A stretch of 64,000 nucleotides of DNA, from positions 80,481 through 144,480 of the IMG/VR virus record IMGVR_UViG_3300046003_004989; one strand, written 5' to 3'. A program made the translations under genes and the position numbers. The DNA is from a virus. Shown here piece by piece: positions 4,655-63,798 of the stretch (the stretch's first letter is position 1; every line of letters begins with the position of its first letter). The notes under the pieces were generated by a model. That model did not search any database. It was not told where the DNA came from and saw only the letters and a program-made list of their open reading frames with translations.

Positions 4655-4996
4655 TTATTTCTTGTAAGTAAAAGCATAGGAACCATCTCTAGTATAGCTC
4701 TTATTAATCTTGCTTTTATGTGAAGCGAAAACTTTAGCTACTAAGTCCTTAGCAAATTTTTCATCTTCTTTTAATTCGGAACCTAGCTTAGAAGTGCTAA
4801 CTACCAAAGTTTCTTTTTTGAAGCCAAATCCACCCACAGTATCTAATAAAATACCCTGAGATCCATCTAATTCAAATTTACTATGCTTCTTGCAAGCATC
4901 TACTAAGTCTTTCATAAAGTTCTCTAGGTCTGTGTATGAGCCTTCATTAATAGAAGATTCATTTAGGAACTCTTCAAATGTTGGAATGTGTTTCAT
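4655..4996 (-). CDS. Putative internal head protein with capsid-targeting N-terminus
   Basis: This 113-residue protein starts MKHIPTFEEFLNES, one of the clearest copies of the shared N-terminal tag. T4 internal proteins begin similarly and are cut by the prohead protease after (I/L)-x-E; here the cut would follow LNE at residue 13, and INE a few residues later is a second candidate. The rest is a small mixed alpha/beta domain rich in Lys and Ser (FELDGSQGILLDTVGGFGF, ending SYTRDGSYAFTYKK) that I do not recognise. It is followed by its own terminator. Packaging into the head is inferred from the tag alone. Confidence 0.8.
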   Translation of the reverse strand: MKHIPTFEEFLNESSINEGSYTDLENFMKDLVDACKKHSKFELDGSQGILLDTVGGFGFKKETLVVSTSKLGSELKEDEKFAKDLVAKVFASHKSKINKSYTRDGSYAFTYKK

Positions 4997-5011
4997 GATT
5001 ATATTTTGTGT

Positions 5012-6868
5012 TTATCTTACGTATTCTTTTACCATTCTCAAAGGTGGAATAGCATTATCGATCATTAAAGCTTGATCTTGATCTCTTACTACAAATTGAT
5101 TAAGAGTTATAGGTTGAACCTCTTCTTCCATTGATTCTTTCCATATTCTAATATTAGTTAGAAGTGTAGTTCCAGCTCTTAACATGAAAGATGTATCGGT
5201 TGGAGTTATCGCTTCAGGAGTCATATTAGAATTTTGAGTAAACAGAAGTCTAAGATTAGTAGTTTTAATTTGTCCATTTGGTGGTAAAGATGAATCGTAT
5301 CTCATACCCCAAATATGAACTGATGTTTGAGAGAATTCATTCATATGATTAACTACAATTCCATACCAATCATTAGGATTCAATTCAGGGAAATTCTGAT
5401 CAAAAACCATTGTTTGAGTGTTTCTAACAACAGTTATCGATTTTGTTTTTCCTGTGATAGGATCGTAATCTAAAGTGATTCCAATACCTTTATTTTCTGA
5501 TGGATTGTAACCATCAATTAGAATATCTGATCCATTTCCAGTAGGCTTAAACCAAGCAGAAAATGCAGTATTCACTTTGTCATCTCGATTTACCGCTAAT
5601 TTATACTTAACCGCAATATCATTTTTAGTCATACCTACAGGTAAGTTGTAGAAGTACTTACCAACTACCGTAAAGTAATTTGTTAGATCTTTTGTTTCGA
5701 TAACTAGCTTATCGTGAATATGACTTCTTACGTGATCGAATCCACCGATAGAAATTGTACGATACTGTAAGGGTTTCGTAATCTCTTCATATTCTCTTTG
5801 GATTTCTCCACCAAGAACTTCGTCTAATGAAACATGAAGATCGTTAACGTACTGATCGATTTCAGGGATGTTACGCATAACATTTAGTTTATCTTGCCAT
5901 TTGAATAGATTGACTCTGTAATAAGCTTCAGTAGCCATAAAATCACGTCTCAAATATGCCGAGTTAACTTCATATATACGATCAATTAGAGGGAAATACA
6001 AATAATCTCTTTGTTCAGGAAGATCGTCTTGTCCGAATGCTCTTTCGAAATGTTCTTTGACGATATGCACTTCTAGACCATCACCAAAATCCATATCATA
6101 AGGTAAGAATGCGATAGCATTGTCTGGGAATTGATTGTCAGGAATCATAATCTTGATATCCTTCACTTCCGTTACCTCATATAGTGAAAACTCTTTTAGA
6201 ACTGGATCAGCAGATTCAGCTTTAACTTGAGTTTTGAAATATCGAACACAATGACCAAACATTTCCGAAACTGCACATGACATTTCGTGATAGATCTTAA
6301 TAGCTGGACTCATTACATCATAAGGACGGAATAGAGCACCATCACAATTAATTGTAATTCCAGAAGAGAAATTTGTAGTAGGACAAGCATTAGCTTTACA
6401 GCCGTCTTGCGTGATTATTTTCGGAGCAACTCCTGTAGGTGTAACACCTTCTTCGAAATTGATAACAATTCTTTCAATCATTCTTGCTCCAGTTTCTGGA
6501 CCTTTTCTGACTAATCTAAATTGTAAGTCAAATGAATCAGAAATTTTATGCGGATTAGGATCAGTTGGACGAATAATGCCATTCAATGTAGATCGTAAAC
6601 TTTCTAATTGCTGACCATTCTCTGCAATTTTAACCCAAGCTGACCAAATAACATGAGGCTTTCCGGTAGCTCTATCTATTGTTGCAATATCATAACTCCA
6701 TCTAATGTAAATGTCATGATAATTCTCCGCAGTCTCTAAAGGAGAGAAGTCAAATTCAATATTTTGTATTGATTTGATATAATAGAAAGCATTCGAAAAG
6801 TCCACAAGCAGGGTATCACCTGCATTGTAAGTTATGTTATTATTGGTTATTTGATAATCGAAACGCAT
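5012..6868 (-). CDS. Putative virion structural protein with LamG-like C-terminal domain
   Basis: This 618-residue protein has no transmembrane segment or signal peptide and no enzyme motif. Residues from about 430 to 590 read like a concanavalin/LamG-type beta sandwich: FSAWFKPTGNGSDILIDG, an N-x-W-Y strand (NPNDWYGIVVNHMN), and the closing TTLLTNIRIWKESM. Such domains occur in phage neck, tail and fibre proteins. A cysteine-containing segment sits near residue 160-200 (GCKANACPTT, TINCDGALF). It lies 15 bases upstream of the small tagged gene at 4996 and close to the terminase genes. A virion role is inferred from fold and neighbours; the T4 equivalent is not known to me. Confidence 0.75.
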   Translation of the reverse strand: MRFDYQITNNNITYNAGDTLLVDFSNAFYYIKSIQNIEFDFSPLETAENYHDIYIRWSYDIATIDRATGKPHVIWSAWVKIAENGQQLESLRSTLNGIIRPTDPNPHKISDSFDLQFRLVRKGPETGARMIERIVINFEEGVTPTGVAPKIITQDGCKANACPTTNFSSGITINCDGALFRPYDVMSPAIKIYHEMSCAVSEMFGHCVRYFKTQVKAESADPVLKEFSLYEVTEVKDIKIMIPDNQFPDNAIAFLPYDMDFGDGLEVHIVKEHFERAFGQDDLPEQRDYLYFPLIDRIYEVNSAYLRRDFMATEAYYRVNLFKWQDKLNVMRNIPEIDQYVNDLHVSLDEVLGGEIQREYEEITKPLQYRTISIGGFDHVRSHIHDKLVIETKDLTNYFTVVGKYFYNLPVGMTKNDIAVKYKLAVNRDDKVNTAFSAWFKPTGNGSDILIDGYNPSENKGIGITLDYDPITGKTKSITVVRNTQTMVFDQNFPELNPNDWYGIVVNHMNEFSQTSVHIWGMRYDSSLPPNGQIKTTNLRLLFTQNSNMTPEAITPTDTSFMLRAGTTLLTNIRIWKESMEEEVQPITLNQFVVRDQDQALMIDNAIPPLRMVKEYVR

Positions 6869-6886
6869 TAAGCATTATTCGTATTT

Positions 6887-16454: not shown

Positions 16455-16955
16455 TTAGCTAAATTTTGTCTCTCTAGCTTTTCTTTCTTTGATATTTGTT
16501 ACAGCCTTTTGAAGTTTCATAACTGTTTGTTTTGCTTGTAGCAAATCAATTTCTGCTTTAGTTACATCAGCGTCTTCAGGTTTTTCTTTCAGTTTTGTAT
16601 ATAGCTTAGCCATATTTTCTTTCATCTTAGCTTCTGCTTCTTTCTCTCTTCTCATTTTTTCCTCTTTAGTAGCATTTTCATTTACTGTTGATTCTGTAGT
16701 ATTAGTGAAAAAATGAGTAACTTGATCTAAATTTTCATTAGCAACTGAAATGTGATCTTCTGCCCAATCATGTCCATTTTTAAGTATTTCATCCATTTTA
16801 TTAGGATCCATAGCTAAAAGAGTTTCAACATTTTTCTTGATGCTTTTTAGATTTCCGAAAACCATGTAGTTTTCTGGTTTTCCTCCGATCGGAGCTTGTA
16901 AAGCTGCTTCATTAACGTATTCGTCGAATGAGTATATGTTTTTAAGTGTTTTCAT
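16455..16955 (-). CDS. Putative internal head protein, coiled coil, tagged N-terminus
   Basis: This 166-residue protein starts MKTLKNIYSFDEYVNEA, a clear copy of the shared tag with a predicted cut after VNE. The C-terminal ~75 residues are a long Lys/Glu-rich helix (EEKMRREKEAEAKMKENM, later ITNIKERKARETK-like sequence) likely to be coiled coil. Basic, helical internal proteins bind DNA inside T4 heads. It ends at the bidirectional terminator and starts 5 bases after the ATP-grasp gene, so both are probably made late and together. Confidence 0.8.
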   Translation of the reverse strand: MKTLKNIYSFDEYVNEAALQAPIGGKPENYMVFGNLKSIKKNVETLLAMDPNKMDEILKNGHDWAEDHISVANENLDQVTHFFTNTTESTVNENATKEEKMRREKEAEAKMKENMAKLYTKLKEKPEDADVTKAEIDLLQAKQTVMKLQKAVTNIKERKARETKFS

Positions 16956-16960: not shown

Positions 16961-18454
16961 TTATTTCTTTTCTGATTCAAATTTGATACCTGCATGACTA
17001 ACTCCTTTAGATTTACCTGCATGATATTCGCCATCAAATGATGTTACCATGAAAGTTTTGTAAGGAGAAACTGAACAACCGATTCTTTCCATGAATTTAC
17101 GATTAGCAAGGAATTTAGTAGATTTTTCTTTTCTGTCTACTAGAGAAACGTGTACATCTTTATAAGTTTTACCACCGAAAGAAACTTCCATTTCGATGAT
17201 GGGACGATTATGAATATCATCACCTACTTCGGTATTTGCAAAGCCTATAACTTTTGATTCGAATGAATTATTACCAAGTTTCCACTTTACAGTTTTTTCA
17301 TCTTCAGATAATTTAACTTCGTCATATGTTAGAGAACAAGACATAGAGCCATTACCAGTGTCGAATTTAGCAACAATATCACCAATTCCAGGGATTGTGA
17401 TAACTTCTCGGAAACCAATAACTCTCTTAGAACGAATCCAATTTGCTTTATCTGATATGAAGTCTATTACATCAGAAACAACATCAATACCTGTAGCTTT
17501 TTTCAAACCGTGAGTTCCTGGAGAAGCATTAACTTCTAGAACATAGTTTTTACCGGTTTTCTTATCAACAATAATGTCAACTCCACACCAGTTACAACCT
17601 ACTGCTTTAGCTGATTCGATTGCTATTCTTTCTTGTTCAGGAGTAACTTTAGTTTTTTCTACGGTACCACCTAAAGAATAATTTGTACGGAAGTCTTTCT
17701 TAACTCGATTTCTTCTCATATATCCAAGAAGAACCGAATCAGTGTCTTGTGGAGTAGGAGAATTGAAACGTCTAGTTAAAACGTGAATACGTAAGTCATA
17801 TTCAGAGTCTATTTTTTCTTGAATAAGAGTTTCAATATTTGGTTGTACTTTCCAAAGAGTTTGAAGTACAGATTTCAAAGAAGCGAGAGAATCAACGATT
17901 GATACACCAATACCTTGAGATCCAGAAAGTAATTTGAGGACTACTGGAAATTGTCCACCAATTGCTTTAACAGCTCCATCAATCGATTCTTCGGAATCAA
18001 CAATTGCCATTTTAGGGACAGGAATACCTGCATCCATTAGAATTTTAGAAGTAACGTATTTGTTTTCACAAGCAAGAACTGATTCTAATGTGTTAACTAC
18101 GAAGAAGTTTGCATCTTCCAATTGAGAAACCAAATCTCTTGTGAAAGTACTTCTTACAATACCACGTCTAGTTAGGATTGCTGTGTCTTCAGAATCTATC
18201 TTAAATGGTTTTTTAGTTTTGTCAACTATTATGAATCCATTACCATCTTTGTCAGGTACTAGATTTGCAGTATTGATGTCAATTATACGGAATTGTACAC
18301 CTCTCTTTTTACATTCAGCTTCAACTGCTGGAACTGTGTAAGATTCTTCACTAATATTAGATAGAAGAACAAGTTTTACTTTTTGTTTCTTCGCTGAGGT
18401 TTTAACTGCCTCATTGATTACGAATTCATCAAAGTATGCTAGACGATTTTTCAT
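16961..18454 (-). CDS. RimK-like ATP-grasp ligase fused to a retropepsin-like (RimB-type) domain, tagged
   Basis: This 497-residue protein has three parts. Residues 1-16 are the tag MKNRLAYFDEFVINEA, with a predicted cut after INE. Residues ~25-340 are an ATP-grasp ligase like RimK: NKYVTSKILMDAGIPVP, the ATP-binding FPVVLKLLSGSQGIGV, YDLRIHVL, and the metal-binding GVDIIVDKKTGKNYVLEVNASPG. Residues ~345-497 resemble the RimB/ATP-dependent zinc-protease retropepsin family, with FDTGNGSMSCSL for the D-T-G-A-x-S active-site loop. RimK adds glutamates to ribosomal protein S6 and RimB is its partner. Here both functions are joined and tagged for the head, so the enzyme may be injected or may modify capsid proteins (inference). 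Confidence 0.85.
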   Translation of the reverse strand: MKNRLAYFDEFVINEAVKTSAKKQKVKLVLLSNISEESYTVPAVEAECKKRGVQFRIIDINTANLVPDKDGNGFIIVDKTKKPFKIDSEDTAILTRRGIVRSTFTRDLVSQLEDANFFVVNTLESVLACENKYVTSKILMDAGIPVPKMAIVDSEESIDGAVKAIGGQFPVVLKLLSGSQGIGVSIVDSLASLKSVLQTLWKVQPNIETLIQEKIDSEYDLRIHVLTRRFNSPTPQDTDSVLLGYMRRNRVKKDFRTNYSLGGTVEKTKVTPEQERIAIESAKAVGCNWCGVDIIVDKKTGKNYVLEVNASPGTHGLKKATGIDVVSDVIDFISDKANWIRSKRVIGFREVITIPGIGDIVAKFDTGNGSMSCSLTYDEVKLSEDEKTVKWKLGNNSFESKVIGFANTEVGDDIHNRPIIEMEVSFGGKTYKDVHVSLVDRKEKSTKFLANRKFMERIGCSVSPYKTFMVTSFDGEYHAGKSKGVSHAGIKFESEKK

Positions 18455-21651: not shown

Positions 21652-23262
21652 TTATACTAAAGAACCTAAGTTTGGATGCATGAAAACACCTGAAGTTAAG
21701 TACATAGTTTCTGGGTGGAAACCAGCTTCTACTAAAGCATAACGAGATTTAACCGCAACTTTAGGAGCCATAGTACCTTCAGCAATTGTTTGTACGCTTT
21801 CAGCCATTAAGTAAGGCATGAATACTAAACCAGGAGAATTACCATCACCTTTACGTCCTACCAAGAAACGTGTATCACCCCAAGCCATGTTAGGATCGTT
21901 GTAGATCGCTAGACCAGCAAGAGTACCGATTGGGTAAAGTGAACCAGACATTTGGTTGATAGTGTTTGCCATTGGAGCAGGTACGAAACCAGCAACGTCT
22001 TGAAGAGCAGAACATACTTGACCGTTAGTTACAACGAAAGTAGCTGGTCCACGACGACCTCTAATAGCAATAAGGTTAGCGATAGCTAATACCTTAGACA
22101 TGATTTTTCTTTGACGAGTTGACATGTTCTCTGAAGCAGAGTTAAGTACCTCATTTTTAACAGCTGTAGCACCTGTAAGTGTAGAGTTGTATAAGTAAGA
22201 TCCGAAGTTAGTCAACGGGTTAGTTGTAGTACCAGAAACTAATACGTCAGTAGCACCAATATTCAAGAAGAAGTTGATTGCTTGTGACTTAATTACGTTA
22301 GCGTGGTTAGTTTCACCTAAGAAGAATAATCTAGTTAAGATGTTTTTGTTGATTGATTGAGTCAATTCGTTAATCAATACTGATTCTACTTGAGATACAG
22401 CATCTACTCCGAATTGTTTCAAATCTTGAACTTGCTCACGAGTTACAGCAGCAGCAACTTGGAAAGTTTTAGCTTCTACTGATTTGTTGAACAATGAAAG
22501 GTTCATGATGTTATCCATCGTACCTTCACCAGTTTCTCTTGAGTAAGGATCGTTGATTGTTTCGTTTGTTGGATAAGAAGCAGCAGCAAGAGCATTACCA
22601 GAGAATCCAGTGATGTGATCTTCAAGAGCTTTTACTAATTCAACAGAAGTAAATGATGTTGCAGTAACACCACCGATAAGAATACCAGAGATTGCAGCAG
22701 CAACAGTTGCAGTACCTGTAGTACCAGCTACTTTGAAGATTGGGTAACCATCAAGACGTGATCCACCGATGTAAGTAAATGTGTAACCAGCAGATGAACC
22801 AACAGCACCAGCAGTAAAGCCAGGTGATGGAGTAGCACCGTAGTTTAATTTAATTAAAAGTGGAGCATTACCTAAAGTACCAGCAGTTTTACCACCACCG
22901 TATACGAAGTCTAAATAAGTAAGAACACCCATTGGACCAGGCATTGGTACAACTGGAACTAAGTCAAGACCAATTGTTTGAGCAGCAACTTGCATAGCAA
23001 GAGGCAATAATGTGTGTGCTTTGTCACCTGAACCAGTCGTTTGGCTATCAAAACCAGACTGAGTAGTCGGAGAATCAGGGAAACGGGTAGCACCCATACC
23101 GTTAACAGCGCCTAATTGAGCTAAGTTGTTGTTTTCGTACAATTCATGGTAATGACAGTATTTAGACATCCACTCAACTTTAGAACGCTCAGTGATTCCA
23201 GTATTAGACTCTACGATAGAAGCCCATTTACCAAAAATTTCTTGTTCGTTAATAAGATACAT
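21652..23262 (-). CDS. 23: Major capsid protein (gp23-like)
   Basis: This 536-residue protein follows the protease-scaffold gene as in T4. Length is close to T4 gp23 (521). The N-terminal ~43 residues would be removed by the prohead protease: HELYE ends in L-Y-E at residue 43, fitting (I/L)-x-E. The mature start, NNNLAQLGAVNGMG, is followed by a QSGFDSQTTGSGD segment that also occurs in the DUF3008-like protein at 51297-51719. Gly/Thr/Ala-rich strands in residues 130-240 fit an inserted surface domain. Its own late promoter with an ~80-base leader and a strong terminator suggest high late expression. Confidence 0.9.
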   Translation of the reverse strand: MYLINEQEIFGKWASIVESNTGITERSKVEWMSKYCHYHELYENNNLAQLGAVNGMGATRFPDSPTTQSGFDSQTTGSGDKAHTLLPLAMQVAAQTIGLDLVPVVPMPGPMGVLTYLDFVYGGGKTAGTLGNAPLLIKLNYGATPSPGFTAGAVGSSAGYTFTYIGGSRLDGYPIFKVAGTTGTATVAAAISGILIGGVTATSFTSVELVKALEDHITGFSGNALAAASYPTNETINDPYSRETGEGTMDNIMNLSLFNKSVEAKTFQVAAAVTREQVQDLKQFGVDAVSQVESVLINELTQSINKNILTRLFFLGETNHANVIKSQAINFFLNIGATDVLVSGTTTNPLTNFGSYLYNSTLTGATAVKNEVLNSASENMSTRQRKIMSKVLAIANLIAIRGRRGPATFVVTNGQVCSALQDVAGFVPAPMANTINQMSGSLYPIGTLAGLAIYNDPNMAWGDTRFLVGRKGDGNSPGLVFMPYLMAESVQTIAEGTMAPKVAVKSRYALVEAGFHPETMYLTSGVFMHPNLGSLV

Positions 23263-23428: not shown

Positions 23429-25333
23429 TTAGTAGCCTCTACCGAAACGTTTTTTAAGACCTGCATGAACAGCTTCCATATAAGCGTCTGGAGTTTGATA
23501 TGCTGCTGTTTCATTAATAGGAGCAGAAGCATTTTCATTGATAGGTGCATCTAATTTAGAAGGACGTAAATCTCTTGTAGACCAGAAGTTATCAACTGCA
23601 TATTGATTATCTAAAACTTTCACAGAAGCTTGAGCTTTGATAGCATTCTTTTGTGATTCGTTAAGACCATTCCAAGATTCTTTGTATTTAGCTGGCATAT
23701 TAGTCAACCAATTGAAAGATGGAGCAGCAATAATAAATGCTGATTCATAAAGTCTTTCAGCATCTACTGAACCATAGAATTTATTGTTTTCAAAGATAGT
23801 GATTACTTCGTCTTTCTTTTCAGGTGTTAAAGAAGCAAATTGATTTCTTTTAGTTTCAGTTAAGAAGTTTAAGAAATGTAATTTGTTAGAGTTATTAGCT
23901 TCATTTACTGCTTTAGCTGATTCTAAAATAGAATTCAATTTATCAGTAAGATTTTTCTCATAATTATCAGAACCTGCATCAATAGTAACATCGATTGCGG
24001 CTGGAGTAGCAGTAGGTTCAGAACCTTCATTTACTGGTTCAGCATTTGCATCAATAACAACTTTACCTTCATTGATTTCTTTAACGATGTGATTTAAGTA
24101 ACCGCTTAAGTTTTCTGTTTGTTCTTTCAAATATTCAGTGTATTCAATGATAGATGATGTACCTTCAACGATATAATCGTTATGAGAAATTACGTTATCT
24201 AATTGTTCATTGATATGATTTTGATAAGACCAACGGTTATTAGATTCGTTAGCTACATATTTAGTGAATTCAATACCTTGATCAGCTTTTTCAGCTACAA
24301 CTTTAGTATATTCAATTCCTTCATCAGCTTTCTTAGCTACAACTTTAGTGTATTCGATTAAGTGGTCAACTGATTCAGCAAGTTTTTCTGAATAGTTAAT
24401 TCCTTGATTAGATCTTTCACCAACAAGTTCAGCGTAATTTTTAACTTTCTCTAGGTTTTCGATGATGTAGTCATTATGTGAAATAAGACCATCAACAGAC
24501 TCAGCAAGTTTTCCAATGTATTCTTGAATTTGGTTAACTCTTTTAGCTGTTTCTTCAGTGTACTTAACAAGTCCTTCATTTACAGAAGTATTGTTATTTG
24601 CATTTTGGGATTCAGTTAAAGCTTTTTTAAGATTGTCAACCTCATTTTTTACATGTTTTGAGTACTCATTAAAGTCTTCAACTGTAATGTATTTTTTAGA
24701 ATCCATTTCGTTGATTTTTGTTTCTTTGTTTGATTCAGTATATTTATCTTCTTCCGTAGATTTGATAGTAGACTCATCCAATGTGAAGTCAGTTTCATAG
24801 ATAGAAATTAGGCTATCTTCACCGAAACCGAAAGATTCATTTACTCTTTTTAATTCAGCATTAGCAAATCCGGGATCTGCTACTAAATCGTAAGTAAACA
24901 TTTTTTTGATCTTAACATGTCCATTAGATTCAACAACACCTGCTGCTCTAGATGAAATATGAAGTGGAACTCCAGCATCAACTAATGCCATAGCTTGTTT
25001 ACCTGCATCTGTATTAAGAAGTCTAATACGACCAGTTACTTTTTTAGATTTTGGATCGTATGAAAGGTCCTCAATGATATGAGAAGCATTTTTTAGGGAG
25101 ATGTCAAAAGACTTAGGATGGTCAAGTTCACCAAGAAGTTTATTACCTTGCAATTTAGCTTGGAGTTCTTGGATGTGAGGCATTAACTCTTTTTCGTCGT
25201 AGATTCTATTGTTTTTGTTTCTAACGCCGATTTCAGTAAATGTACCTTCTAGCACATACTTATCTCCGTCTTTAGAAGATTGAAGATTCCCTTCGGATCT
25301 TTCTAATACGAGTAGATATTTGTTATTGCTCAT
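23429..25333 (-). CDS. 21: Prohead protease fused to scaffold (gp21+gp22-like)
   Basis: This 634-residue protein combines two functions that are separate genes in T4. Residues 1-165 are a gp21-type serine protease: His72 in GELDHP, Ser127/128 in HISSRAAG and Asp153 in LVADPGF fit the S80-family catalytic set. From about 205 the protein is long coiled coil with near-repeats of about 14 residues (EYTKVVAKKADEGI, EYTKVVAEKADQGI, EFTKYV), as expected for a scaffold core. Candidate self-cleavage sites include VNES at about 164, KINEMD near 206, and APINENASAPINETA near the C-terminus. Fusion would place the protease inside the core at a fixed ratio. It lies between portal and capsid genes, the T4 position. 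Confidence 0.9.
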   Translation of the reverse strand: MSNNKYLLVLERSEGNLQSSKDGDKYVLEGTFTEIGVRNKNNRIYDEKELMPHIQELQAKLQGNKLLGELDHPKSFDISLKNASHIIEDLSYDPKSKKVTGRIRLLNTDAGKQAMALVDAGVPLHISSRAAGVVESNGHVKIKKMFTYDLVADPGFANAELKRVNESFGFGEDSLISIYETDFTLDESTIKSTEEDKYTESNKETKINEMDSKKYITVEDFNEYSKHVKNEVDNLKKALTESQNANNNTSVNEGLVKYTEETAKRVNQIQEYIGKLAESVDGLISHNDYIIENLEKVKNYAELVGERSNQGINYSEKLAESVDHLIEYTKVVAKKADEGIEYTKVVAEKADQGIEFTKYVANESNNRWSYQNHINEQLDNVISHNDYIVEGTSSIIEYTEYLKEQTENLSGYLNHIVKEINEGKVVIDANAEPVNEGSEPTATPAAIDVTIDAGSDNYEKNLTDKLNSILESAKAVNEANNSNKLHFLNFLTETKRNQFASLTPEKKDEVITIFENNKFYGSVDAERLYESAFIIAAPSFNWLTNMPAKYKESWNGLNESQKNAIKAQASVKVLDNQYAVDNFWSTRDLRPSKLDAPINENASAPINETAAYQTPDAYMEAVHAGLKKRFGRGY

Positions 25334-25386: not shown

Positions 25387-27000
25387 TTACATACCCGTAA
25401 CTTCAGCATCTTTCTTAGCTGCTTCACGTTTTGCTTCGTCTTCTAATTCTTTTAATTTTTTGTTTAATCTTAGATCTTCTGCTGATAAACCGAGGAATCT
25501 TTGTATCAAGAATTCGGATGAGAAGTATTTAATTTCGTTCATATTAGCATCTGTTTCAACTAGACCATCTTTCATAGATTGTACGAAGTCTAATCGTTTT
25601 TGTAAGATTTCTATCTCTTTCATTTCTTCGAAGATATTGTATCTGTGATATTTGATACCAATTTGTGCTTTGAATGCATCATCTTCTTTTAATTCAGGGA
25701 AGTCAAGACACATCTGAATCCAAAGAGGTTTAACAAGAATTTCTTGGAAAACTGAACGAAGACGAGTAACAAAACGACCGAATTTAATTTCATCTCGAGT
25801 CATACCTTCGGCATTCATCTCCCATGAAGGAGGTGATTCCATATCAAAACGAGAAAGAGGAATTTTAGATACTTTGATTAACTTCTCACGGAAGTATTTA
25901 AGTGCATCAGTATCAGACAAGTCTGGACCATCATTACCAATTGTTTCAATTGTTGGTTCACCTGCATCACCTGAAGGAAACCAATATTCTTTATTGAACG
26001 GCATCATCGCTTTACCATTAACTTTCAATTCACCTGAATCGGTATCGAAGTCAATTTGTTCACGGTAGTTTTGCATCAAAACACCAAGAGATTGTTTTGC
26101 TCTAGTTTTTGATTTACCACCGACTGGTATAACGAATTTAGTTTTGAATGATGCATTTACTGTTGCCCAAATAACTCTTGAGTGCTCCATAATTCGGAGT
26201 AAGTTAAATGAACGGATAAGACGCTCAACATAAGAAACACGATTAACTGTGTTAACGTTGGCATATGATATGTAAATTACTTGAGAATCGTAAATTACAC
26301 GTTCTTTATTAGGTTGACCTTTGAACTGTTTCCAAAGTTTTTTACCTTCTTTGTCAAGACCTGGCTCTAATGAGATAGGATCTAATTCTTTGAAACCGAT
26401 AATTCTGGTTTGCTCTTTATTATAAATTATCTCAAATGCGAGATAACCATCAACTAACCATTTTCTAAAGTATGACCAAGCTGCGATATCATTATTGAAT
26501 CCGAAGTATTGGTAAACTCTTTTAAAGTTAGTCTCTAATGCGATTTTTATTGCTTCTAATGTGCCAGGTTCTAATGTTTCATCATCAAATGCTAGCGGAT
26601 AACAAAAATAATTTTTATCATCAAATACAATACACTCATCACACAGAGTGTCTAGAATATCTTCAATTTCATCTTGTATAGCGAATTTACGAAGGTCTTC
26701 TCGTTTCTTTGGATATGATTTATCAAAAATTGAAATTGATTTTCTTAAATTGATATCTGTCATTGATAGGTTTGCAAATAGAGCATAATCGTCATATTCA
26801 CCACCTGCAACGTTTCTTGGATCCATTGTCCAACCGTAACGATCTTCGTTTATACCAATAGCCTTAGAGTTCTTCAACACCATATCGTCATACATCATAC
26901 CGAATGATGATAACGACTTAAGAGCTTTACTAACGAGGTTTCTAGATGCTGGATTTGGTTTTCCAGCTGAAGTTTCGTCTCTGTTTACGAATCCTGCCAT
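25387..27000 (-). CDS. 20: Portal protein (gp20-like)
   Basis: This 537-residue protein (T4 gp20: 524) forms the twelve-subunit ring at the head vertex through which DNA enters. Typical portal sequences are visible: SYFRKWLVDGYLAFEIIY, FKELDPISLEPG, RSFNLLRIMEHSRVIWATV, and the C-terminal SRFDMESPPSWEMNAEG with REKLIKVSKIP just before. The order portal, protease-scaffold, capsid confirms it. The C-terminus is Lys/Glu-rich. Confidence 0.92.
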   Translation of the reverse strand: MAGFVNRDETSAGKPNPASRNLVSKALKSLSSFGMMYDDMVLKNSKAIGINEDRYGWTMDPRNVAGGEYDDYALFANLSMTDINLRKSISIFDKSYPKKREDLRKFAIQDEIEDILDTLCDECIVFDDKNYFCYPLAFDDETLEPGTLEAIKIALETNFKRVYQYFGFNNDIAAWSYFRKWLVDGYLAFEIIYNKEQTRIIGFKELDPISLEPGLDKEGKKLWKQFKGQPNKERVIYDSQVIYISYANVNTVNRVSYVERLIRSFNLLRIMEHSRVIWATVNASFKTKFVIPVGGKSKTRAKQSLGVLMQNYREQIDFDTDSGELKVNGKAMMPFNKEYWFPSGDAGEPTIETIGNDGPDLSDTDALKYFREKLIKVSKIPLSRFDMESPPSWEMNAEGMTRDEIKFGRFVTRLRSVFQEILVKPLWIQMCLDFPELKEDDAFKAQIGIKYHRYNIFEEMKEIEILQKRLDFVQSMKDGLVETDANMNEIKYFSSEFLIQRFLGLSAEDLRLNKKLKELEDEAKREAAKKDAEVTGM

Positions 27001-28288: not shown

Positions 28289-28642
28289 TTATTCTTCGTC
28301 TTCGTCTTCAGTAGAAGCACCTTCTTGAACTTGTGCGATTCCACCTTTACCGATCAAAGCAGAAATTTCTTCTTCTGTGAATTGAACGTCATTAGCTTTG
28401 TCTTCACCATTAAAGATATAAACACCATTAGTAACACCTTGATAGATCATATCTGTATGTTTGTCAGCATCAACAGTTAAAACGTACTCTTTACCAGGAG
28501 TAAGATCTGCAACAGTTGCAAGAGCTCCACCTACTGGATCAGCATCCGTTGTGTTAGTTGGGTTGAATCCGTCAGCATCATTAGCTTCTTGAACGTTATA
28601 ATGTTCGTTTACGAATTCATCAAATGATAGTAAATTTTTCAT
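28289..28642 (-). CDS. Tagged internal-protein candidate with a small beta domain
   Basis: This 117-residue acidic protein starts MKNLLSFDEFVNEHY, a clear shared tag with a predicted cut after VNE. Residues ~47-100 (LTPGKEYVLT, MIYQGVTNGVYIFNGEDK, FTEEEISALIGKGGI) form a small beta domain that recurs at the C-terminus of the 554-residue protein at 31775-33439. The tail is almost pure Asp/Glu. A late-type motif lies just upstream. Confidence 0.8.
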   Translation of the reverse strand: MKNLLSFDEFVNEHYNVQEANDADGFNPTNTTDADPVGGALATVADLTPGKEYVLTVDADKHTDMIYQGVTNGVYIFNGEDKANDVQFTEEEISALIGKGGIAQVQEGASTEDEDEE

Positions 28643-30674: not shown

Positions 30675-31151
30675 TTATATCTTAAATTCGTCGTCTTCTT
30701 CAGAATCTTCTTCGTCACTTGCAGCTTCTTTCTCTCCAGCTTTATCAGCCTTTTCTTCTCCAGTTTCTTTCTTAGCGTCTGGATCTTCAACATCCACTTC
30801 TTTGAATTTTTCTAGATCTTCAGGAGATACTTCTTGTTTAAGAATGAATATAGAAGGAGCTTCGTTTGTAAAGATTTTATAGCGACCATAGTCATAAACA
30901 AAGAGAACTGTTCCATCTTTGCTTATTTCGTAAGTTTTTGTAAATGCATCTTGTTTGATCTGATAACCCTTTTCTGCATTTTCTTTTCTCCATGCTGTCC
31001 ACCAAGTAGGAGACATAGCATAAAGACGATGGAAGTCAGATAGCTTAGTTTTCTTACCATCATTTTCTTTGGCATCATCTAAAGCTTGCTTCACACCGAA
31101 ATAAGGCAAATATTGCTCGTTAAATTGTTCGTATGACGGTAGATTTTTCAA
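30675..31151 (-). CDS. Tagged protein, probably starting at TTG, 158 aa
   Basis: I place the start at the TTG at 31151, because that gives MKNLPSYEQFNEQYLP, nearly identical to the tag of the gene at 29509, and a 10-base gap from the gene before. The frame can be extended to a GTG at 31205, but this would add 18 residues before the tag and overlap gp55 by 44 bases. The middle (YQIKQDAFTKTYEISKDGTV, FVYDYGRYKIF) is a small beta domain; the tail is very acidic (SDEEDSEEDDEF). The cleavage site would be FNE, a weaker match. Confidence 0.75.
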   Translation of the reverse strand: MKNLPSYEQFNEQYLPYFGVKQALDDAKENDGKKTKLSDFHRLYAMSPTWWTAWRKENAEKGYQIKQDAFTKTYEISKDGTVLFVYDYGRYKIFTNEAPSIFILKQEVSPEDLEKFKEVDVEDPDAKKETGEEKADKAGEKEAASDEEDSEEDDEFKI

Positions 31152-51296: not shown

Positions 51297-51719
51297 TTAA
51301 AAGGCTGATCTTAGTTCTTTACTTCCTTGAATAAAGTCTTGAAAAGACTGAAAAGAAGATTTTTTCTTTTTTCTCGGTTGGCCTTTAACCAATGAGTAAG
51401 GTATGTCACCAGAACCAGTTTTTTGACTAGCAAAACCTGATTGAGAGCCCGGATTTCCTGGAAGTGCAGGAGAACCCATTCCATTGACATTAGAAACTGT
51501 TGCCATTCCACCGTCTTCATTAACTTCGTCTTTTGAGACAGGAAGGCCTTCATGTTTTGTTTTAGCAAAGTCTTCTAAGTCCTTTTTAGACATAGAGTCT
51601 GCTAGGTCTTGGATTTGCTTTCTATATTCTGGATTGATATCAGAAGCTTTCAAATCACCCATTTTGAGTGCATAGGCTTGACCCATTAATCTTTGTTGTG
51701 ATTGTGAAACTGCTGGCAT
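51297..51719 (-). CDS. DUF3008-like protein sharing a segment with the major capsid protein
   Basis: Residues 1-60 (MPAVSQSQQRLMGQAYALK, then MSKKDLEDFAKTKHEGLP) match the DUF3008 helical family often found in phages. After a candidate cleavage site, DEVNE at about residue 68, follows NVNGMG ... QSGFASQKTGSGD, which matches the start of the mature capsid protein (AVNGMG ... QSGFDSQTTGSGD) over about 27 residues. The C-terminus is very basic (KGQPRKKKKSSF). It may bind where the capsid N-terminus binds, or be processed with it. Confidence 0.8.
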   Translation of the reverse strand: MPAVSQSQQRLMGQAYALKMGDLKASDINPEYRKQIQDLADSMSKKDLEDFAKTKHEGLPVSKDEVNEDGGMATVSNVNGMGSPALPGNPGSQSGFASQKTGSGDIPYSLVKGQPRKKKKSSFQSFQDFIQGSKELRSAF

Positions 51720-52363
51720 TATGCTCTAGTTGATTTATATGACATGTCTTTCAGAAGTTTCTCCACTATTTGAGTAGCTTCTTCTTTAGTAGAATAGTCT
51801 TGAGAGAAGATAATTGATCCGTTTGAATTTCCTAAATTCTTAGCATCTATAGAATATGTTGTACATGTAACAGATGCTTGATATTCTGTAACACCTTTCC
51901 AATTCATTTCTTGTACTCCAAATAAGAAGATAGCTGCTAAGCCATTTCCAATTTTAACTGTCCATCTACCAACTTCAGTAAAGACTTTTTTATCATAAGA
52001 GTTCAGATTACCTTTATTGTCTGGGTAAACTGATTCTGTTATTGCTTCTGGATTTTCCCCTTCAAATAAATAAAGTTCGTAGCGATATTTATAAGCTTTA
52101 TCTGCAGTAGATTTTGAAAGTTTTTTAGCAGGAACTCCGAAAGCTCTTAATTTACTCATAATTTCATCTCTTCTTGATGAACTATCATGTCTGAAGATTA
52201 ATCGGTTGCTATTTCCTCTTTCACCTTTAACGAATTCTACACTTTGTGCACCGATACCGTAAGGATTTTCAGTGAATTTATCTTTAATTTCGTCAAATGT
52301 CAATGACTCATTAATTCCTTCGATTAAGAATTCATCAAATGAAGGTATTGGCTTAATTTCCAT
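51719..52363 (-). CDS. Tagged internal-protein candidate, 214 aa
   Basis: Starts MEIKPIPSFDEFLIEGINES, with LIE (and INE) as predicted cleavage sites, both exact fits to (I/L)-x-E. A second part with a helix and strands (DEIMSKLRAFGVPAKKLSKS, YRYELYLFEGENP) and a beta-rich C-terminus (QASVTCTTYSIDAKNLG, IIFSQDYSTKEEATQIVE). Function unknown. The start overlaps the preceding tagged gene's end by at most a few bases. Confidence 0.8.
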   Translation of the reverse strand: MEIKPIPSFDEFLIEGINESLTFDEIKDKFTENPYGIGAQSVEFVKGERGNSNRLIFRHDSSSRRDEIMSKLRAFGVPAKKLSKSTADKAYKYRYELYLFEGENPEAITESVYPDNKGNLNSYDKKVFTEVGRWTVKIGNGLAAIFLFGVQEMNWKGVTEYQASVTCTTYSIDAKNLGNSNGSIIFSQDYSTKEEATQIVEKLLKDMSYKSTRA

Positions 52364-52364
52364 T

Positions 52365-52709
52365 TTAGTTTTTTATTTTGAATCCGATAATGATTTCGCA
52401 ATCTTGATCGTAATATCTTCGGTCTTCAGCAAAATATGATTGCTCAAAGACTGTCTTTTTATTTTCATTAAGATGAATGAATAGCTCTGATTCAGAAGTC
52501 CAAGTCATGAAAGTATAAACTAGATTCCTGTCTTTATCTTCTGCTACATAAACTTTAGCGTTCTCTACATCATCATTATCATTCTGAAATTTATCTTTCA
52601 ATTCTTGATTAAAAGTCCATTTCATTTTATCCAGACGATATGCTTCGATATCATACGGAACATCGGCTTCATTTAGCCATTGTGTGAATGTAGGAATGTG
52701 ATTTTTCAT
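52365..52709 (-). CDS. Tagged internal-protein candidate, 114 aa
   Basis: Starts MKNHIPTFTQWLNEADVPY, close to the tag at 4996, with a predicted cut after LNE. The mature part is a small alpha/beta domain with many acidic residues and a strand pair (NAKVYVAEDKDRNLVYTFMT) and ends YYDQDCEIIIGFKIKN. Function unknown. Confidence 0.8.
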   Translation of the reverse strand: MKNHIPTFTQWLNEADVPYDIEAYRLDKMKWTFNQELKDKFQNDNDDVENAKVYVAEDKDRNLVYTFMTWTSESELFIHLNENKKTVFEQSYFAEDRRYYDQDCEIIIGFKIKN

Positions 52710-52710: not shown

Positions 52711-53904
52711 TTAAGATTCTTGTGCTATCATTGCATCAATAACATCAGATGATATCCAACCTTTAGCTTTAAGAAATTGTTTTGCTAATGCCAATACTTT
52801 CTTTTCACCCGCAGGAGTAACTTCGTTTTCTTTACCCATTTCGTTATTATCATTCCACTCTTCAACTGAAGCTTCTACTTCTTGTTTTAGTTGCATATCA
52901 TTTAAACGAGAAAGTTTAGAAGAATTTTCATGATAATCTTCCCAGTACTTAGCATTAAAACTTTCATCGATAGATTCATCAACTGATTCGTTGATTTTCT
53001 TCTTTAATTCAGCTAATTCTGGTTTTAATTTAGCATCTAAACCTCTTTCAATTCCCCAATTGTATGATGCTTTGATTAGCATATAAAGCGGTAGATTTGC
53101 ATTCTTTTTACCGAATGGAGAAGTTCTGATCCAATCGAAGATATGTTCTGCTAAGTCTTTAGAAAGTTTAATACCTTCTGCAGATGATGTTTCACCTTTA
53201 ACGATAGATTGAAGTAGCTTACTTGCCATTCCATGAGAACCTTCGTTAATGTTTGATTCGTTTATTGTCGAGAACTTGAAAAGTCCAATTGATTCTTTTA
53301 TCATGCCTTTTTGATTTTGTGTTTTTGCTTTTACTATTTGTTCAAGTACACGCTTACCAAATTTAGAAAGAGACCAAACTTGCTGTCCTCGATTTTCTTT
53401 TGATTCGAAATACTTTTCATTACGAGAGAACCATTTTCTTTGATCGATAGCATTTCCTCTATCTTCTTCTAGTGAAGTCAAAAAGTTTTTAAGTTCTTCA
53501 TTAGTTACATAACGTTTACCAACAAACTCAACAACTCTATTTCGTATAGGAGCTTGAGTATTGATGTTATGTGCACTATATTCGCCGTATTTTCTTTTGA
53601 TTTGTACTCTTTCATTAACTTCCTCTTCTACGGATTCATCAACGATTTTTACTACATTAGCGTTAAGATAGTCAAGATTAACATCAATTGCTAAACTGAC
53701 ATTTTTATCTTTTGCTATTTTATTGAAAGGTTTGATAGTAACTTCATCAGATTGTTTACGATTATTAGAACCTCGCAAACCAGATTTAACTACCTTCCAA
53801 ACTTCTCCATCTTTAAAATGAATCAATTTATCGATAGCATAATCTTCAATTTTTGTCTTTTTACTCTCATTAAGAGCTTTAAGGATTGAGATTTCTTTTG
53901 CCAT
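52711..53904 (-). CDS. Putative internal/structural protein, 397 aa
   Basis: Starts MAKEISILKALNESKKTK; LNE at residues 11-13 is a possible cleavage site although the aromatic part of the tag is absent. The N-terminal ~95 residues look beta-rich (DKLIHFKDGEVWKVVKSGLRG). Further LNE/INE-like sites occur (FSTINESNINEGSHG near residue 215; KKINESVDESIDES near 310). The C-terminus is helical and contains a small domain, VEEWNDNNEMGKENEVTPAG. The upstream promoter motif overlaps the stop of the ligase-like gene. Confidence 0.75.
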   Translation of the reverse strand: MAKEISILKALNESKKTKIEDYAIDKLIHFKDGEVWKVVKSGLRGSNNRKQSDEVTIKPFNKIAKDKNVSLAIDVNLDYLNANVVKIVDESVEEEVNERVQIKRKYGEYSAHNINTQAPIRNRVVEFVGKRYVTNEELKNFLTSLEEDRGNAIDQRKWFSRNEKYFESKENRGQQVWSLSKFGKRVLEQIVKAKTQNQKGMIKESIGLFKFSTINESNINEGSHGMASKLLQSIVKGETSSAEGIKLSKDLAEHIFDWIRTSPFGKKNANLPLYMLIKASYNWGIERGLDAKLKPELAELKKKINESVDESIDESFNAKYWEDYHENSSKLSRLNDMQLKQEVEASVEEWNDNNEMGKENEVTPAGEKKVLALAKQFLKAKGWISSDVIDAMIAQES

Positions 53905-62112: not shown

Positions 62113-62463
62113 TTAAACTTCACCAAAGGAATCTATCTTAGAATATAACTCTTCGATAGTATGTCCACATTTGGCATTTTTCTTTTTATTTTCTCTAGCT
62201 TTTAACATCTGTAGATTACAAGGATGTGCTATAAAAAATGGATTTATTTTATCTTTATATGCTTGAGATATCGAATAAATATGATCGAGATGATTAGCTT
62301 TCCAACTTCTCTTCAGACCTTTTGGATTTATTTGCTTCTTAAAAAGATCATAGTTCTTTTCAGTCAAAGCTCTAACAAATATAAAATAATCTTCTTTAGT
62401 CTCAAATAACCATTCCCAATCATTTCGATAATTTTCAAATACAATTAAATTCGGATTCAACAT
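62113..62463 (-). CDS. HNH-type endonuclease-like protein, 116 aa
   Basis: The core is HLDHIYSISQAYKDKINPFF, then AHPCNLQMLKARENKKK, which resembles the H-N-H pattern of small homing endonucleases (DHIxSI ... NLxxL ... N). The N-terminus is helical. It overlaps the tagged KTSC gene by one base. It may be a selfish nuclease or a cellular-type helper; no intron or insertion boundary was seen. Confidence 0.75.
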   Translation of the reverse strand: MLNPNLIVFENYRNDWEWLFETKEDYFIFVRALTEKNYDLFKKQINPKGLKRSWKANHLDHIYSISQAYKDKINPFFIAHPCNLQMLKARENKKKNAKCGHTIEELYSKIDSFGEV

Positions 62464-62786
62464 TATAATTTCTCGTATGTATAGGATCCTCTTCTAATCA
62501 ATGCCCAGAATCTAGTTCCATAAGTAGATGAGTCATCTCCTTTCTTGAACAGGGCTTTAATTTTAGATCCAACTTTATTAAATAGATTTGGTTCATCTGC
62601 GAACTCTCTAAACACCTCTTTAGGTACATCAAAATATTGATATTTCGAGTCATTCCAAAATTCTACTTCTAGAACTTTAGTATCACTATCATACTCAATA
62701 GATCGCAAATGAGAAGACGAAACTGATTTGTTCCACGTCTTCTCAAAAAGCTCATTAAATTCATTGTATGTGAGGAATTGACTCAT
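62463..62786 (-). CDS. Tagged KTSC-domain protein
   Basis: The first 18 residues (MSQFLTYNEFNELFEKTW) resemble the shared tag in a weaker form. The rest is a KTSC domain: VSSSHLRSIEYDSDTKVLEV, then KYQYFDVPKEVFREF and NLFNKVGSKIKALF, named for a domain found near lysyl-tRNA synthetase and in many phages. The length is normal for a single KTSC domain plus tail. Function unknown; possibly a head-packaged protein. Confidence 0.78.
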   Translation of the reverse strand: MSQFLTYNEFNELFEKTWNKSVSSSHLRSIEYDSDTKVLEVEFWNDSKYQYFDVPKEVFREFADEPNLFNKVGSKIKALFKKGDDSSTYGTRFWALIRRGSYTYEKL

Positions 62787-63436
62787 TAGGTTTTTCTATT
62801 ATCTTCTATCCACTTTTTGAAAACAGGAATAGCGGCTTTCATTCCATCAGTTTGATTCGCTGAATGTTCTGCTCGATTCATCATAGTTGTAGCAATTGCC
62901 ATAGCATGTTTATGATCAGTTTTCTTCAATTTATTCATAATCGTTACAGTCTTTTCTGCTTTCTCTTTTGAACCATAACCAGTACCTTTAACTGCATCTT
63001 TAGTTCCTGGGTTAAAGAGACCATCACCTTCATCTATCAAATCTTCAGAAATAATCAAATCTAAGTCAAAACCTTCAATTTCTTCGGATTCTGATTTCTT
63101 ATTTTTATCAATCCACTCTCTGAAAATTTTCTGAGCTTCTCTCATTTCAGGTGTTTGATGTTTATGTATTTTAGCTCGTGTTTCCATCGTTGTAGCAATA
63201 GACATTGCCCATACATTTTCACCTTTACTCATCAACCAATCGAGTTTCTTTACTGTAAATTCGGCCTTTTCTTTATTAGCGTATCCAGTTCCTTTGATTG
63301 CTGACTTACCTCCTTTTGAATAAAGTCCTTCTTCAGGTGGATCGTCTTTATACTCTCTTCTTTTAACAGTATGACCAACTCTAGGTTTTTTCTCTTCTTC
63401 GTTTAAGAAGTCTTCGTAAGATATTAAATTTCTCAT
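62786..63436 (-). CDS. Tagged protein with a duplicated domain, 216 aa
   Basis: The ATG at 63436 gives MRNLISYEDFLNEEEKKP, a good tag, and overlaps the upstream stop as ATGA; an in-frame TTG at 63472 would add 12 residues before it. Two copies of a ~75-residue domain follow: the first has KSAIKGTGYANKEKAEFTV ... SIATTMETRAKIHKHQ, the second KDAVKGTGYGSKEKAEKTV ... AIATTMMNRAEHSANQ, each ending in a W-I-x-x-N helix. The duplication looks old. Function is unknown; both copies are rich in Lys. Confidence 0.82.
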   Translation of the reverse strand: MRNLISYEDFLNEEEKKPRVGHTVKRREYKDDPPEEGLYSKGGKSAIKGTGYANKEKAEFTVKKLDWLMSKGENVWAMSIATTMETRAKIHKHQTPEMREAQKIFREWIDKNKKSESEEIEGFDLDLIISEDLIDEGDGLFNPGTKDAVKGTGYGSKEKAEKTVTIMNKLKKTDHKHAMAIATTMMNRAEHSANQTDGMKAAIPVFKKWIEDNRKT

Positions 63437-63798
63437 TTTGGATCTGGTTTTTCGCCTTTTCCTTCTAACCAATCTGCTACATCTTTATCGGATGTGGAAT
63501 AAGCTTTTTGTTTGTTTATAAATGCGTTCATTCTAGCATAACCCCAAGCATTGTATGCTGCTGGTCTTCCTAGAGCTTTTATTTGAGGTCTTAAAGCACC
63601 CCAATTAGTTTGTGCAGCTCCATATCCTCGTTTAAAGAGAACCATTAGAGCATGTTTGAGTTTTCCTTCGTCAGAGATGCCAAGTTTCTTTTGGGTCTCA
63701 GGATCTTTAGAAAGATCTTCAACTCTAGTTTCAGGTCCACTCTCTTCATTGATGACAGATTCATCAAGAAATTCTGTATAAGATAAGAATGTTTTCAT
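63433..63798 (-). CDS. Tagged internal-protein candidate, 121 aa
   Basis: Starts MKTFLSYTEFLDESVINEES, very close to T4 internal-protein starts; LDE and INE are predicted cleavage sites. The mature part is helical (GKLKHALMVLFKRGYGAAQT, ALGRPAAYNAWGYARMNAF) and ends in a charged tail. Its start is preceded by an AGATACATAT motif and by copy 2 of the structured repeat. Confidence 0.82.
   Translation of the reverse strand: MKTFLSYTEFLDESVINEESGPETRVEDLSKDPETQKKLGISDEGKLKHALMVLFKRGYGAAQTNWGALRPQIKALGRPAAYNAWGYARMNAFINKQKAYSTSDKDVADWLEGKGEKPDPK

What the first reader, a model, noticed from the sequence alone, without database searches (positions are those of the whole stretch)
4655..63798. About sixteen unrelated proteins share an N-terminal peptide resembling a capsid-targeting sequence
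Seen directly: genes starting at 4996, 16955, 18454, 28642, 29509, 30672, 31151, 31763, 34152, 34932, 52363, 52709, 56383, 62786, 63436 and 63798 begin with variants of M-K-x-[LI]-x-[ST]-[FY]-x-[ED]-[FYW]-[LVI]-N-E (for example MKHIPTFEEFLNES, MKLTTFEEWLNEA, MKTFLSYTEFLDES), followed by bodies with no similarity to each other. Established knowledge: T4 internal proteins start with a similar peptide (MKTYQEFIAEA-type) that sends them into the prohead, and gp21 cuts after (I/L)-x-E. Inference: this phage packs an unusually large and varied protein cargo in its head, including a RimK-like ligase, a KTSC protein and a multi-helix membrane-active protein. T4 has only a few such proteins. This may be a modular system for delivering proteins with the DNA.
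Basis: partly seen in the sequence, partly recalled or inferred. Interest (0 to 1): 0.92.

Follow-up and report, generated by a model that had tools for sequence, protein, structure and literature searches.

The report
Phage head packed with tagged proteins
This large bacterial virus tags dozens of unrelated proteins with the same short, cut-off-able address label that the well-studied virus T4 puts on a few, most likely to load them into its head and inject them with its DNA.

Summary
Of the 16 window starts, 11 carry the peptide strictly, 4 are variants backed to differing degrees by homologues, and 1 (56383) is doubtful. A second, dense cluster lies outside the window on the same 144-kb phage record. 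In all, 27 of 218 predicted genes match a strict motif (1.2 expected after shuffling, 0 reversed), about 11% of coding capacity. Four relatives carry 30-49 each.

The peptide matches T4's capsid-targeting sequence at the four positions mapped in T4. Conservation collapses right after the predicted cut. Codons are synonymously saturated, so selection acts on the peptide. The phage encodes a T4-type prohead protease, and its capsid protein keeps an L-x-E site. Tagged bodies are mutually unrelated, more basic and cysteine-poor.

In cultured relative PAU, 4 of 5 proteins annotated "internal capsid protein" carry PAU's own version. A RimK-like enzyme keeps the tag in 27 of 27 homologous loci found.

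The mechanism, CTS-directed packaging and gp21-type trimming, is known from T4. The scale, the enzymes and the cargo islands in jumbo-phage relatives look new. Packaging and injection remain unproven without virion proteomics.

The parts
4655..4996 (-). Tagged protein, MKHIPTFEEFLNE|SSINE|GS, two candidate cut sites
16455..16955 (-). Tagged protein, MKTLKNIYSFDEYVNE|AA
   Evidence: homologues
16961..18454 (-). Tagged RimK-like ATP-grasp ligase plus weakly matched Zn_protease-like region, MKNRLAYFDEFVINE|AV
   Evidence: PF08443 2.7e-34, PF05618 0.0064 below its cut-off; peptide ending [LIV]xE|[AS] in 27 of 27 homologous loci by eye, 20 by the core pattern
21652..23262 (-). Major capsid protein (T4 gp23 type); L-Y-E43|N44 before the conserved core, about window 23134
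   Evidence: phrog_138 2.3e-34; alignment with 32 relatives
23429..25333 (-). T4 gp21-type (S77) prohead protease, 634 aa, enlarged
   Evidence: PF03420 6.8e-14; phrog_207 9.7e-41
25387..27000 (-). Portal protein (T4 gp20 type)
   Evidence: phrog_213 2.1e-74
28289..28642 (-). Tagged protein, MKNLLSFDEFVNE|HYNVQE|ANDADGF; in one relative (L026) the tag directly precedes ANDADGF
28694..29509 (-). Tagged protein, MKNLPSYDQYLNE|NY
29509..30672 (-). Tagged protein, variant MKRILSYEEYMIFE|AQ
   Evidence: one non-identical homologue with a similar N-terminus
30675..31151 (-). Tagged protein, weak variant with TTG start, MKNLPSYEQFNE|QY
   Evidence: some homologues have the full tag
31539..31763 (-). 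Tagged protein, MKLTTFEEWLNE|AK
33472..34152 (-). Tagged protein, MNNIPSYDDFILE|SLVLE|AS
   Evidence: weak phrog membrane-protein match
34162..34932 (-). Tagged protein, MGLIKSYTEFVNE|NL; well conserved
   Evidence: 15 of 16 homologous loci keep the tag, the 16th is truncated
51719..52363 (-). Tagged protein, MEIKPIPSFDEFLIE|GINE|SL
52365..52709 (-). Tagged protein, MKNHIPTFTQWLNE|AD
52711..53904 (-). Possible degenerate tag, MAKEISILKALNE|SK; parts of the body match separately tagged proteins of G007 and G024
62463..62786 (-). Tagged KTSC-domain protein (variant tag; orthologues strict)
   Evidence: PF13619 4.9e-15; orthologues
62786..63436 (-). Tagged protein, MRNLISYEDFLNE|EE
63433..63798 (-). 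Tagged protein, MKTFLSYTEFLDE|SVINE|ES

Best explanation
The shared N-terminal peptide is a capsid-targeting sequence. During head assembly its two aromatic residues, three apart, dock the protein onto the prohead core. The phage's own gp21-type (S77) protease then cuts after [LIV]-x-E, sometimes a second time a few residues on, and removes the tag. The mature, often basic, cysteine-poor body stays among the DNA and is ejected into the host with it. One tag therefore serves as a common loading address for dozens of unrelated effectors. A subset beside the head genes is mostly conserved (including the RimK-like ligase), and a fast-changing set sits in cargo islands, plausibly aimed at host take-over and first-line defences. 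Shown here: the motif, its statistics, the protease gene, the capsid-protein site, conservation and composition. Inferred: docking, cutting, packaging, ejection and the purpose of the cargo.
For: Counts: 173 tagged of 1,553 predicted genes in five records (27/218, 49/446, 35/353, 32/323, 30/213), against a shuffled mean of 0.6-1.3 per record and 0 reversed in each. A separate DNA-pattern search of 25 relatives gave 218 matches to 5 control matches, with 24 of 25 records hit (sums).

T4 logic: in IPIII, residues 4 and 7 matter for targeting and 8 and 10 for processing (passages of PMC9026906). In T4's IPII/IPIII peptide (read from the record) these are Y, F, I and E. Here the same spacing holds F/Y, F (149 of 173), L/V/I and E. 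Information falls from 3.0 bits (P2) and 1.4 (P1', S/A/G in 121 of 173) to 0.6 or less from P2' on.

Second site: [LIV]NE within 12 residues of the first in 30 of 170, 0 of 170 in each of three later windows, 26 of 1,147 in untagged controls; the looser [LIVMF]xE gives 39, then 12, 10 and 10 of 170, and 127 of 1,147 in controls.

Protein-level selection: different-codon fraction at identical residues 0.470 against 0.460 expected from codon usage.

Machinery: S77 protease, gp20/gp23-type head genes, an [LI]-x-E before the capsid core in 33 of 33 aligned capsid proteins, comparable to T4 FLTE65|A.

Independent profile: PHROG 'internal head protein' gave 4 hits at E<=0.05 in nine records, all 4 at the N-termini of tagged genes.

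Cultured relative PAU: about 19 tagged proteins; 4 of 5 'internal capsid protein' CDS carry the tag, Fisher p 6e-5 with the hand-set 19. PAU's mature capsid protein (520 of 585 residues, N-terminal sequencing, Table 1 of PMC5646251) starts within one residue of LME64|N.

Body composition: tagged bodies are cysteine-poor (0.40% against 0.83%; 105 of 173 without Cys against 47 of 161 length-matched) and more basic (median pI 7.9 against 5.9) than conserved untagged genes.

Tag kept in 27 of 27 RimK loci and 15 of 16 loci of the 34162 gene.
Against: I found no virion proteomics for this phage or its near relatives (listings). One of five PAU 'internal capsid protein' CDS (gp70) lacks the tag, and the basis of those annotations is not stated. 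PAU's sequenced capsid N-terminus, taken literally, is one residue past the Glu. The candidate cut sites differ in detail: FVNE|S in tags, LYE|N in the capsid protein, whose leader holds other [LIV]xE as well. PTm1, Lak-B5, PAU and MA9V-2 gave no match to the DNA pattern, so this dialect is not general; nine of 25 IMG/VR relatives had only 0-2 matches. The Glu and the aromatics are built into the strict search, so their invariance is circular; the fall-off around them is not. The other three PHROG hits are weak and the family also rang in 2 of 14 controls. The scans that fetched the loci used one peptide from inside the tag among six, which favours loci with a tag. Several homologues lack the strict tag.
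Confidence: 0.88

Rival explanations
1. Most tagged proteins are prohead core or scaffold parts, like T4 gp22, gp67 and gp68, that are loaded, chopped up and lost, rather than cargo delivered to the host.
For: Nine tagged or variant genes sit near the portal, protease and capsid genes, most of them conserved in relatives. PAU gp152, annotated 'scaffolding', carries PAU's tag. No gp22-type scaffold was recognised among the ten proteins scanned. PTm1's homologue of the protease is annotated 'prohead core scaffolding protein and protease'.
Against: Candidate [LIV]NE cuts cluster at the N-terminus, with none in residues 13-48 after the first. Some bodies are recognisable enzymes or domains (RimK, CTP_transf_like, KTSC). 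The island genes vary between relatives, unlike scaffold. It may hold for a minority.
Confidence: 0.08
2. The peptide is a localisation signal for something other than the head, such as a replication compartment or the membrane.
For: An N-terminal signal shared by unrelated proteins can serve any compartment, and jumbo phages do sort proteins (passages of PMC13282480).
Against: It matches the mapped T4 targeting and cleavage positions. Conservation ends at a gp21-type site. Four of five PAU 'internal capsid' proteins carry their form of it.
Confidence: 0.03
3. The tags are remnants of one duplicated gene family, or a DNA/RNA leader copied between genes, with no present function as a peptide.
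For: Tagged genes lie in runs: 14 adjacent pairs in G000 against 3.2 by chance. Tags within one phage resemble each other.
Against: Synonymous sites are saturated while residues are kept. Bodies are unrelated. Homologous pairs with about 30-50% body identity both keep the strict core (which compared tagged pairs only).
Confidence: 0.01

Closest known systems
[quoted passage not shown]
   Same: 10-19-residue N-terminal peptide with the same aromatic, aliphatic and Glu positions (IPII and IPIII; IPI differs); unrelated, basic bodies; T4-type protease and head genes; variable gene sets in hotspots.
   Different: T4 has three and its relatives 'at least 10 reported' (PMC12373910). Here 27 strict tags sit on one 144-kb record and 49 on one 294-kb relative, including enzymes, some with two successive candidate cut sites, in jumbo-phage relatives far from T4.
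T4 Alt, a packaged ADP-ribosyltransferase (PMC9026906, passage)
   Same: An enzyme packaged in the head and trimmed by gp21, which modifies a host protein at entry; the tagged RimK-like ligase would be comparable.
   Different: Different chemistry; the RimK-like target is unknown.
Ejection or inner-head proteins of phiKZ and SPN3US (PMC13282480, PMC5694885, PMC10052503: passages)
   Same: Giant phages carrying many proteins in the head, some with protease-trimmed propeptides.
   Different: Their propeptides are mostly long, and in SPN3US 42 head proteins were judged uncleaved. Here one short common tag is used on dozens.
Sphingomonas phage PAU
   Same: About 19 genes with a common N-terminal peptide MK[ST][LI]xxLYE[AS], often followed by LNE[AS], many near T4-type head genes.
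   Different: Own dialect of the peptide; separate short protease and scaffold genes.

Membership tests
T4-type CTS-tagged internal head proteins | Short N-terminal peptide with aromatics at T4 positions 4 and 7, aliphatic at 8, Glu at 10 | tested here: met
   T4 peptides read from the record; functional mapping from PMC9026906 passages
T4-type CTS-tagged internal head proteins | Phage encodes a gp21-type (S77) prohead protease | tested here: met
   PF03420 E 6.8e-14, above cut-off
T4-type CTS-tagged internal head proteins | Bodies unrelated except for the leader | tested here: met
   no pair among 27 G000 bodies at E<=1e-4; 111 families among 173 proteins
T4-type CTS-tagged internal head proteins | Bodies basic | tested here: inconclusive
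   a trend only: median pI 7.9 against 5.9; 84 of 173 above pI 8 against 198 of 777
T4-type CTS-tagged internal head proteins | Sequence relation to known internal-head-protein profiles | tested here: inconclusive
   phrog_2667: best E 1.6e-5, others weak, all 4 at tagged N-termini, none in G000 itself
T4-type CTS-tagged internal head proteins | Present in the virion with N-terminus cut after the Glu | not testable with these tools
   needs virion mass spectrometry; indirect: PAU annotations
T4-type CTS-tagged internal head proteins | Injected into the host with the DNA; anti-restriction or take-over role | not testable with these tools
   needs infection experiments
RimK-like ATP-grasp ligases | RimK ATP-grasp domain | tested here: met
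   PF08443 2.7e-34 in 16961-18454

The most novel reading that the evidence does not exclude
A whole clade of jumbo phages uses the head as a general-purpose injection system. About 6-11% of coding capacity goes to effectors that share one detachable address label. They are swapped in and out of cargo islands with shared borders and include enzymes for protein modification (RimK-like), NAD or nucleotide chemistry (NMNAT/cytidylyltransferase-like), and RNA or nucleotide joining (ligase-like and nucleotidyltransferase-like). These would act in the first minutes, before phage genes are read, against host defences. The label then lets injected effectors be read directly from sequence.
Probability: 0.45. 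Interest if true: 0.87.

Novelty: new variant of a known kind. Interest (0 to 1): 0.74.

Why it matters
The three T4 internal proteins are injected inhibitors of host restriction enzymes (PMC12373910, passages), but few such proteins are known. A recognisable tag on 27-49 proteins per record would turn a long-standing question, which proteins a giant phage injects, into a list read from sequence. It also points to a culturable phage (PAU) where one proteomics run could decide the matter. The tagged set is rich in unknown families and possible counter-defence proteins, and the tag may be usable to load chosen proteins into large phage heads.

Tried and rejected
Structure prediction of the 34162-34932 protein with 12 sequences gave a poor model (mean pLDDT 54), so I made no fold search and draw nothing from it. 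A solved-structure search with the capsid protein found nothing at E<=0.01, so I used relatives and the T4 record instead. A scan for relatives of 33472-34152 confirmed none, although homologues are present in 13 loci already held. An exact-pattern scan of IMG/VR for one dialect gave only 6 stretches, too narrow to measure spread. YerA41's RimK homologue is annotated 'structural protein' and the virion study reports 63 particle proteins (PMC7354516, passages). Its N-terminus lacks the tag, and enzymes such as a ribonucleotide reductase subunit are also noted as present in the particle, so I count it only as a hint. The PHROG polynucleotide-kinase and RNA 2'-phosphotransferase matches among relatives' tagged proteins are single weak hits, so I do not claim an RNA-repair kit. 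Papers were seen as search listings with the start of abstracts, as passages, and one section part; none was read whole. In the full-text searches no listed paper was, by title or abstract start, about large sets of CTS-tagged genes in such phages; some searches listed only the best 30, 20 and 12 of more papers, and the library lacks most subscription papers.


Full report
What was checked. The window is bases 80481-144480 of a 144,480-base phage record, G000. A DNA pattern gave 19 matches on the coding strand and 1 on the other; the pattern read backwards gave 1 and 0. At protein level 27 of 218 predicted genes begin with M-x(2-8)-[FYW]-x-x-[FYW]-[LIVM]-x-E; shuffled N-termini give 1.2 on average and reversed proteins 0. 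The densest cluster, G000 30867-43518, lies outside the window: 18 genes on one strand in my hand list, two of them not strict. The gene picker missed one strict case, G000 35324-35602, seen.

Which phage. The head genes are of T4 type: portal, S77 prohead protease, gp23-type capsid protein, DNA end protector and head closure protein. The capsid protein is 56% identical to that of a 462-kb huge phage (LR756500), 35-39% to Lak phages and about 32-33% to Tenacibaculum, Sphingomonas PAU and Chryseobacterium phages. IMG/VR relatives reach 294 and 429 kb, so the record is probably a fragment of a jumbo phage. That the host is a Bacteroidota bacterium is an inference from the hosts of some of these relatives.

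Relatives. A DNA-pattern search of 25 of the 80 capsid-gene records found 218 matches and 5 control matches; 24 of 25 records matched, though nine had 0-2 each and three records are probably one phage. Four were read in stretches: strict tags in 49 of 446, 35 of 353, 32 of 323 and 30 of 213 predicted genes. Five named phages were tested with the same pattern: LR756500 matched (17 places, 1 control), while PTm1, Lak-B5, PAU and MA9V-2 did not. PAU has a dialect of its own, MK[ST][LI]xxLYE[AS], often followed by KLNE[AS]: 23 pattern hits of 591 ORFs, of which I judge about 19 real (about 6 kb of PAU was not held).

Why a capsid-targeting sequence. In T4 IPIII, amber-suppressor tests showed that targeting depends mainly on residues 4 and 7 and processing on residues 8 and 10 (PMC9026906 passages). 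In the T4 peptide read from the record these are Tyr, Phe, Ile and Glu. The peptides here have F/Y, F/W/Y, L/V/I and E at the same spacing, usually three residues further from the start (129 of 173 have a 13-residue propeptide). The strict pattern fixes those classes, so their invariance is no evidence by itself. What is not fixed is telling. P5 is acidic in 128 of 173, P2 is Asn in 141, and P1' is Ser, Ala or Gly in 121. Information content drops to 0.6 bits or less from P2' onward, as expected if a protease separates a common leader from unrelated bodies. A second [LIV]NE follows within 12 residues in 30 of 170 and in none of the next three windows; untagged controls give 26 of 1,147. The looser [LIVMF]xE gives 39 of 170, then 12, 10 and 10, and 127 of 1,147 in controls. 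In homologues with different leaders the conserved body starts straight after a Glu: LNE|GGAYGHL, ILE|GGSYGHL, and INE|ANDADGF or xxE|A[TN]DADGF.

Selection is on the peptide. Among the 27 G000 tags, identical residues use different codons as often as codon usage predicts (0.470 against 0.460). Recent copying and a DNA or RNA signal are therefore unlikely.

The protease and its other substrate. In T4 gp23 the site is FLTE65|A. In this capsid protein and its 32 aligned relatives, 33 of 33, an [LI]-x-E stands shortly before the conserved core, LYE43|N here; the leaders hold further [LIV]xE, so which is cut is not settled. PAU's mature capsid protein is given as 520 of 585 residues from N-terminal sequencing (PMC5646251 Table 1), within one residue of LME64|N.

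Evidence from composition and profiles. Tagged bodies have half the cysteine of conserved untagged proteins (120 in 30,097 residues against 1,869 in 225,107), 105 of 173 have none against 47 of 161 length-matched controls, and they are more basic. The PHROG profile 'internal head protein' matched four places at E<=0.05 in nine records, all four at the N-termini of tagged genes, none in G000; only one is strong (1.6e-5), and the profile also rang in 2 of 14 control genomes. In PAU, 4 of the 5 genes annotated 'internal capsid protein' carry the tag and gp70 does not; Fisher p 6e-5 with 19 tags among about 295 genes. How the depositors reached that annotation is not stated. PAU gp152, annotated 'scaffolding', carries the tag too.

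The cargo. The 173 bodies form 111 families by single linkage, 84 of them singletons. Most match nothing. Named matches in the window record are RimK with a weak Zn_protease-like region (16961-18454), KTSC (62463-62786) and a cytidylyltransferase/NMNAT-like domain (G000 34446-35252). Among 146 tagged proteins of four relatives, Pfam and PHROGs give a RimK-like, three or four cytidylyltransferase-like and three KTSC proteins, and single matches to PAP2, glycosyltransferase, polynucleotide kinase, RNA 2'-phosphotransferase and others. The RimK-like gene keeps a leader ending [LIV]xE|[AS] in 27 of 27 IMG/VR loci down to 46% identity (20 by the core pattern, 7 read by eye, one of them truncated). 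One of the 27 is the window's own sequence, several come from the records above, and one of the six search peptides lay in the tag, so the set is not independent or unbiased. Homologues in Pelagibacter phage Mosig and Methylophilales phage Melnitz-3 start with T4-like leaders (PFKNYLEE|A and KFSQFITE|E), while Synechococcus phage S-RIM8 as annotated and YerA41 do not.

Organisation. Tagged genes lie in runs: 14 adjacent pairs in G000 against 3.2 expected, and similarly in the four relatives. One island is bordered in G000, G024 and G005 by the same two kinds of gene: a protein with a KTDG motif (ligase-like; motif recalled, no family match) that is 81% and 72% identical in G024 and G005, and a [GS]GNA protein that looks like a nucleotidyltransferase (recalled motif; the three are linked through G014 89526-90455). 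Between them lie 16, 18 and 4 predicted genes, of which 13, 15 and 1 are strictly tagged; only 5 of the 13 G000 bodies have a match among the 15 of G024. G007 and G014 were not compared in this way.

Reading. The most likely mechanism is the T4 one: the leader docks the protein on the prohead core, the gp21-type protease removes it, and the body is ejected with the DNA. T4's three internal proteins share only the leader and each blocks a different type IV restriction enzyme; at least 10 such proteins were reported for T4's relatives (PMC12373910 passages). Here the same principle is expanded several-fold in a distant jumbo-phage group, with enzymes among the cargo. Packaging, cutting and injection are inferred. 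Some head-locus members may instead be core proteins.

Noticed in passing
window 23429-25333: The S77 protease gene is 634 aa, three times T4 gp21. PTm1's homologue is annotated 'prohead core scaffolding protein and protease', so protease and scaffold may be fused here.
   Followed up: partly
G000 42223-43518 and 31968-33152 (outside the window): The two genes bordering the cargo island look like a KxDG ligase-type and a pol-beta-type nucleotidyltransferase (motifs recalled); no Pfam, PHROG or (for the first) PDB sequence match.
   Followed up: partly
G000 34446-35252; G024 79550-80371; G016 307744-308319: A tagged NMNAT/cytidylyltransferase-like protein, and in two of six records searched a NAPRTase/NAMPT-family gene, hint at an NAD salvage pathway partly carried in the head.
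   Followed up: partly
window 31162-31518: Small gene among the tagged genes with a sub-threshold sigma-70 region 2 match (E 7e-4).
   Followed up: no
window 18931-20958: 675-aa gene shortly after the capsid gene, fast-diverging; its N-terminus MENNKLQQFILE|S resembles a tag but is not conserved in relatives.
   Followed up: partly
window 15929-16390: One of the few likely plus-strand genes on the record (153 aa); a similar-looking gene lies in G005 at 190467-190850.
   Followed up: no
PAU record JQ362498: PAU genes annotated with 'mango' and 'banana' capsid names and five 'internal capsid proteins', pointing to structural work that I did not find in print.
   Followed up: partly
tagged proteins of G005, G007, G014, G024 (alignment A1): One of 146 has a weak match to PF20798, a cysteine methyltransferase family named after a bacterial effector (E 7e-5); not located.
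   Followed up: no
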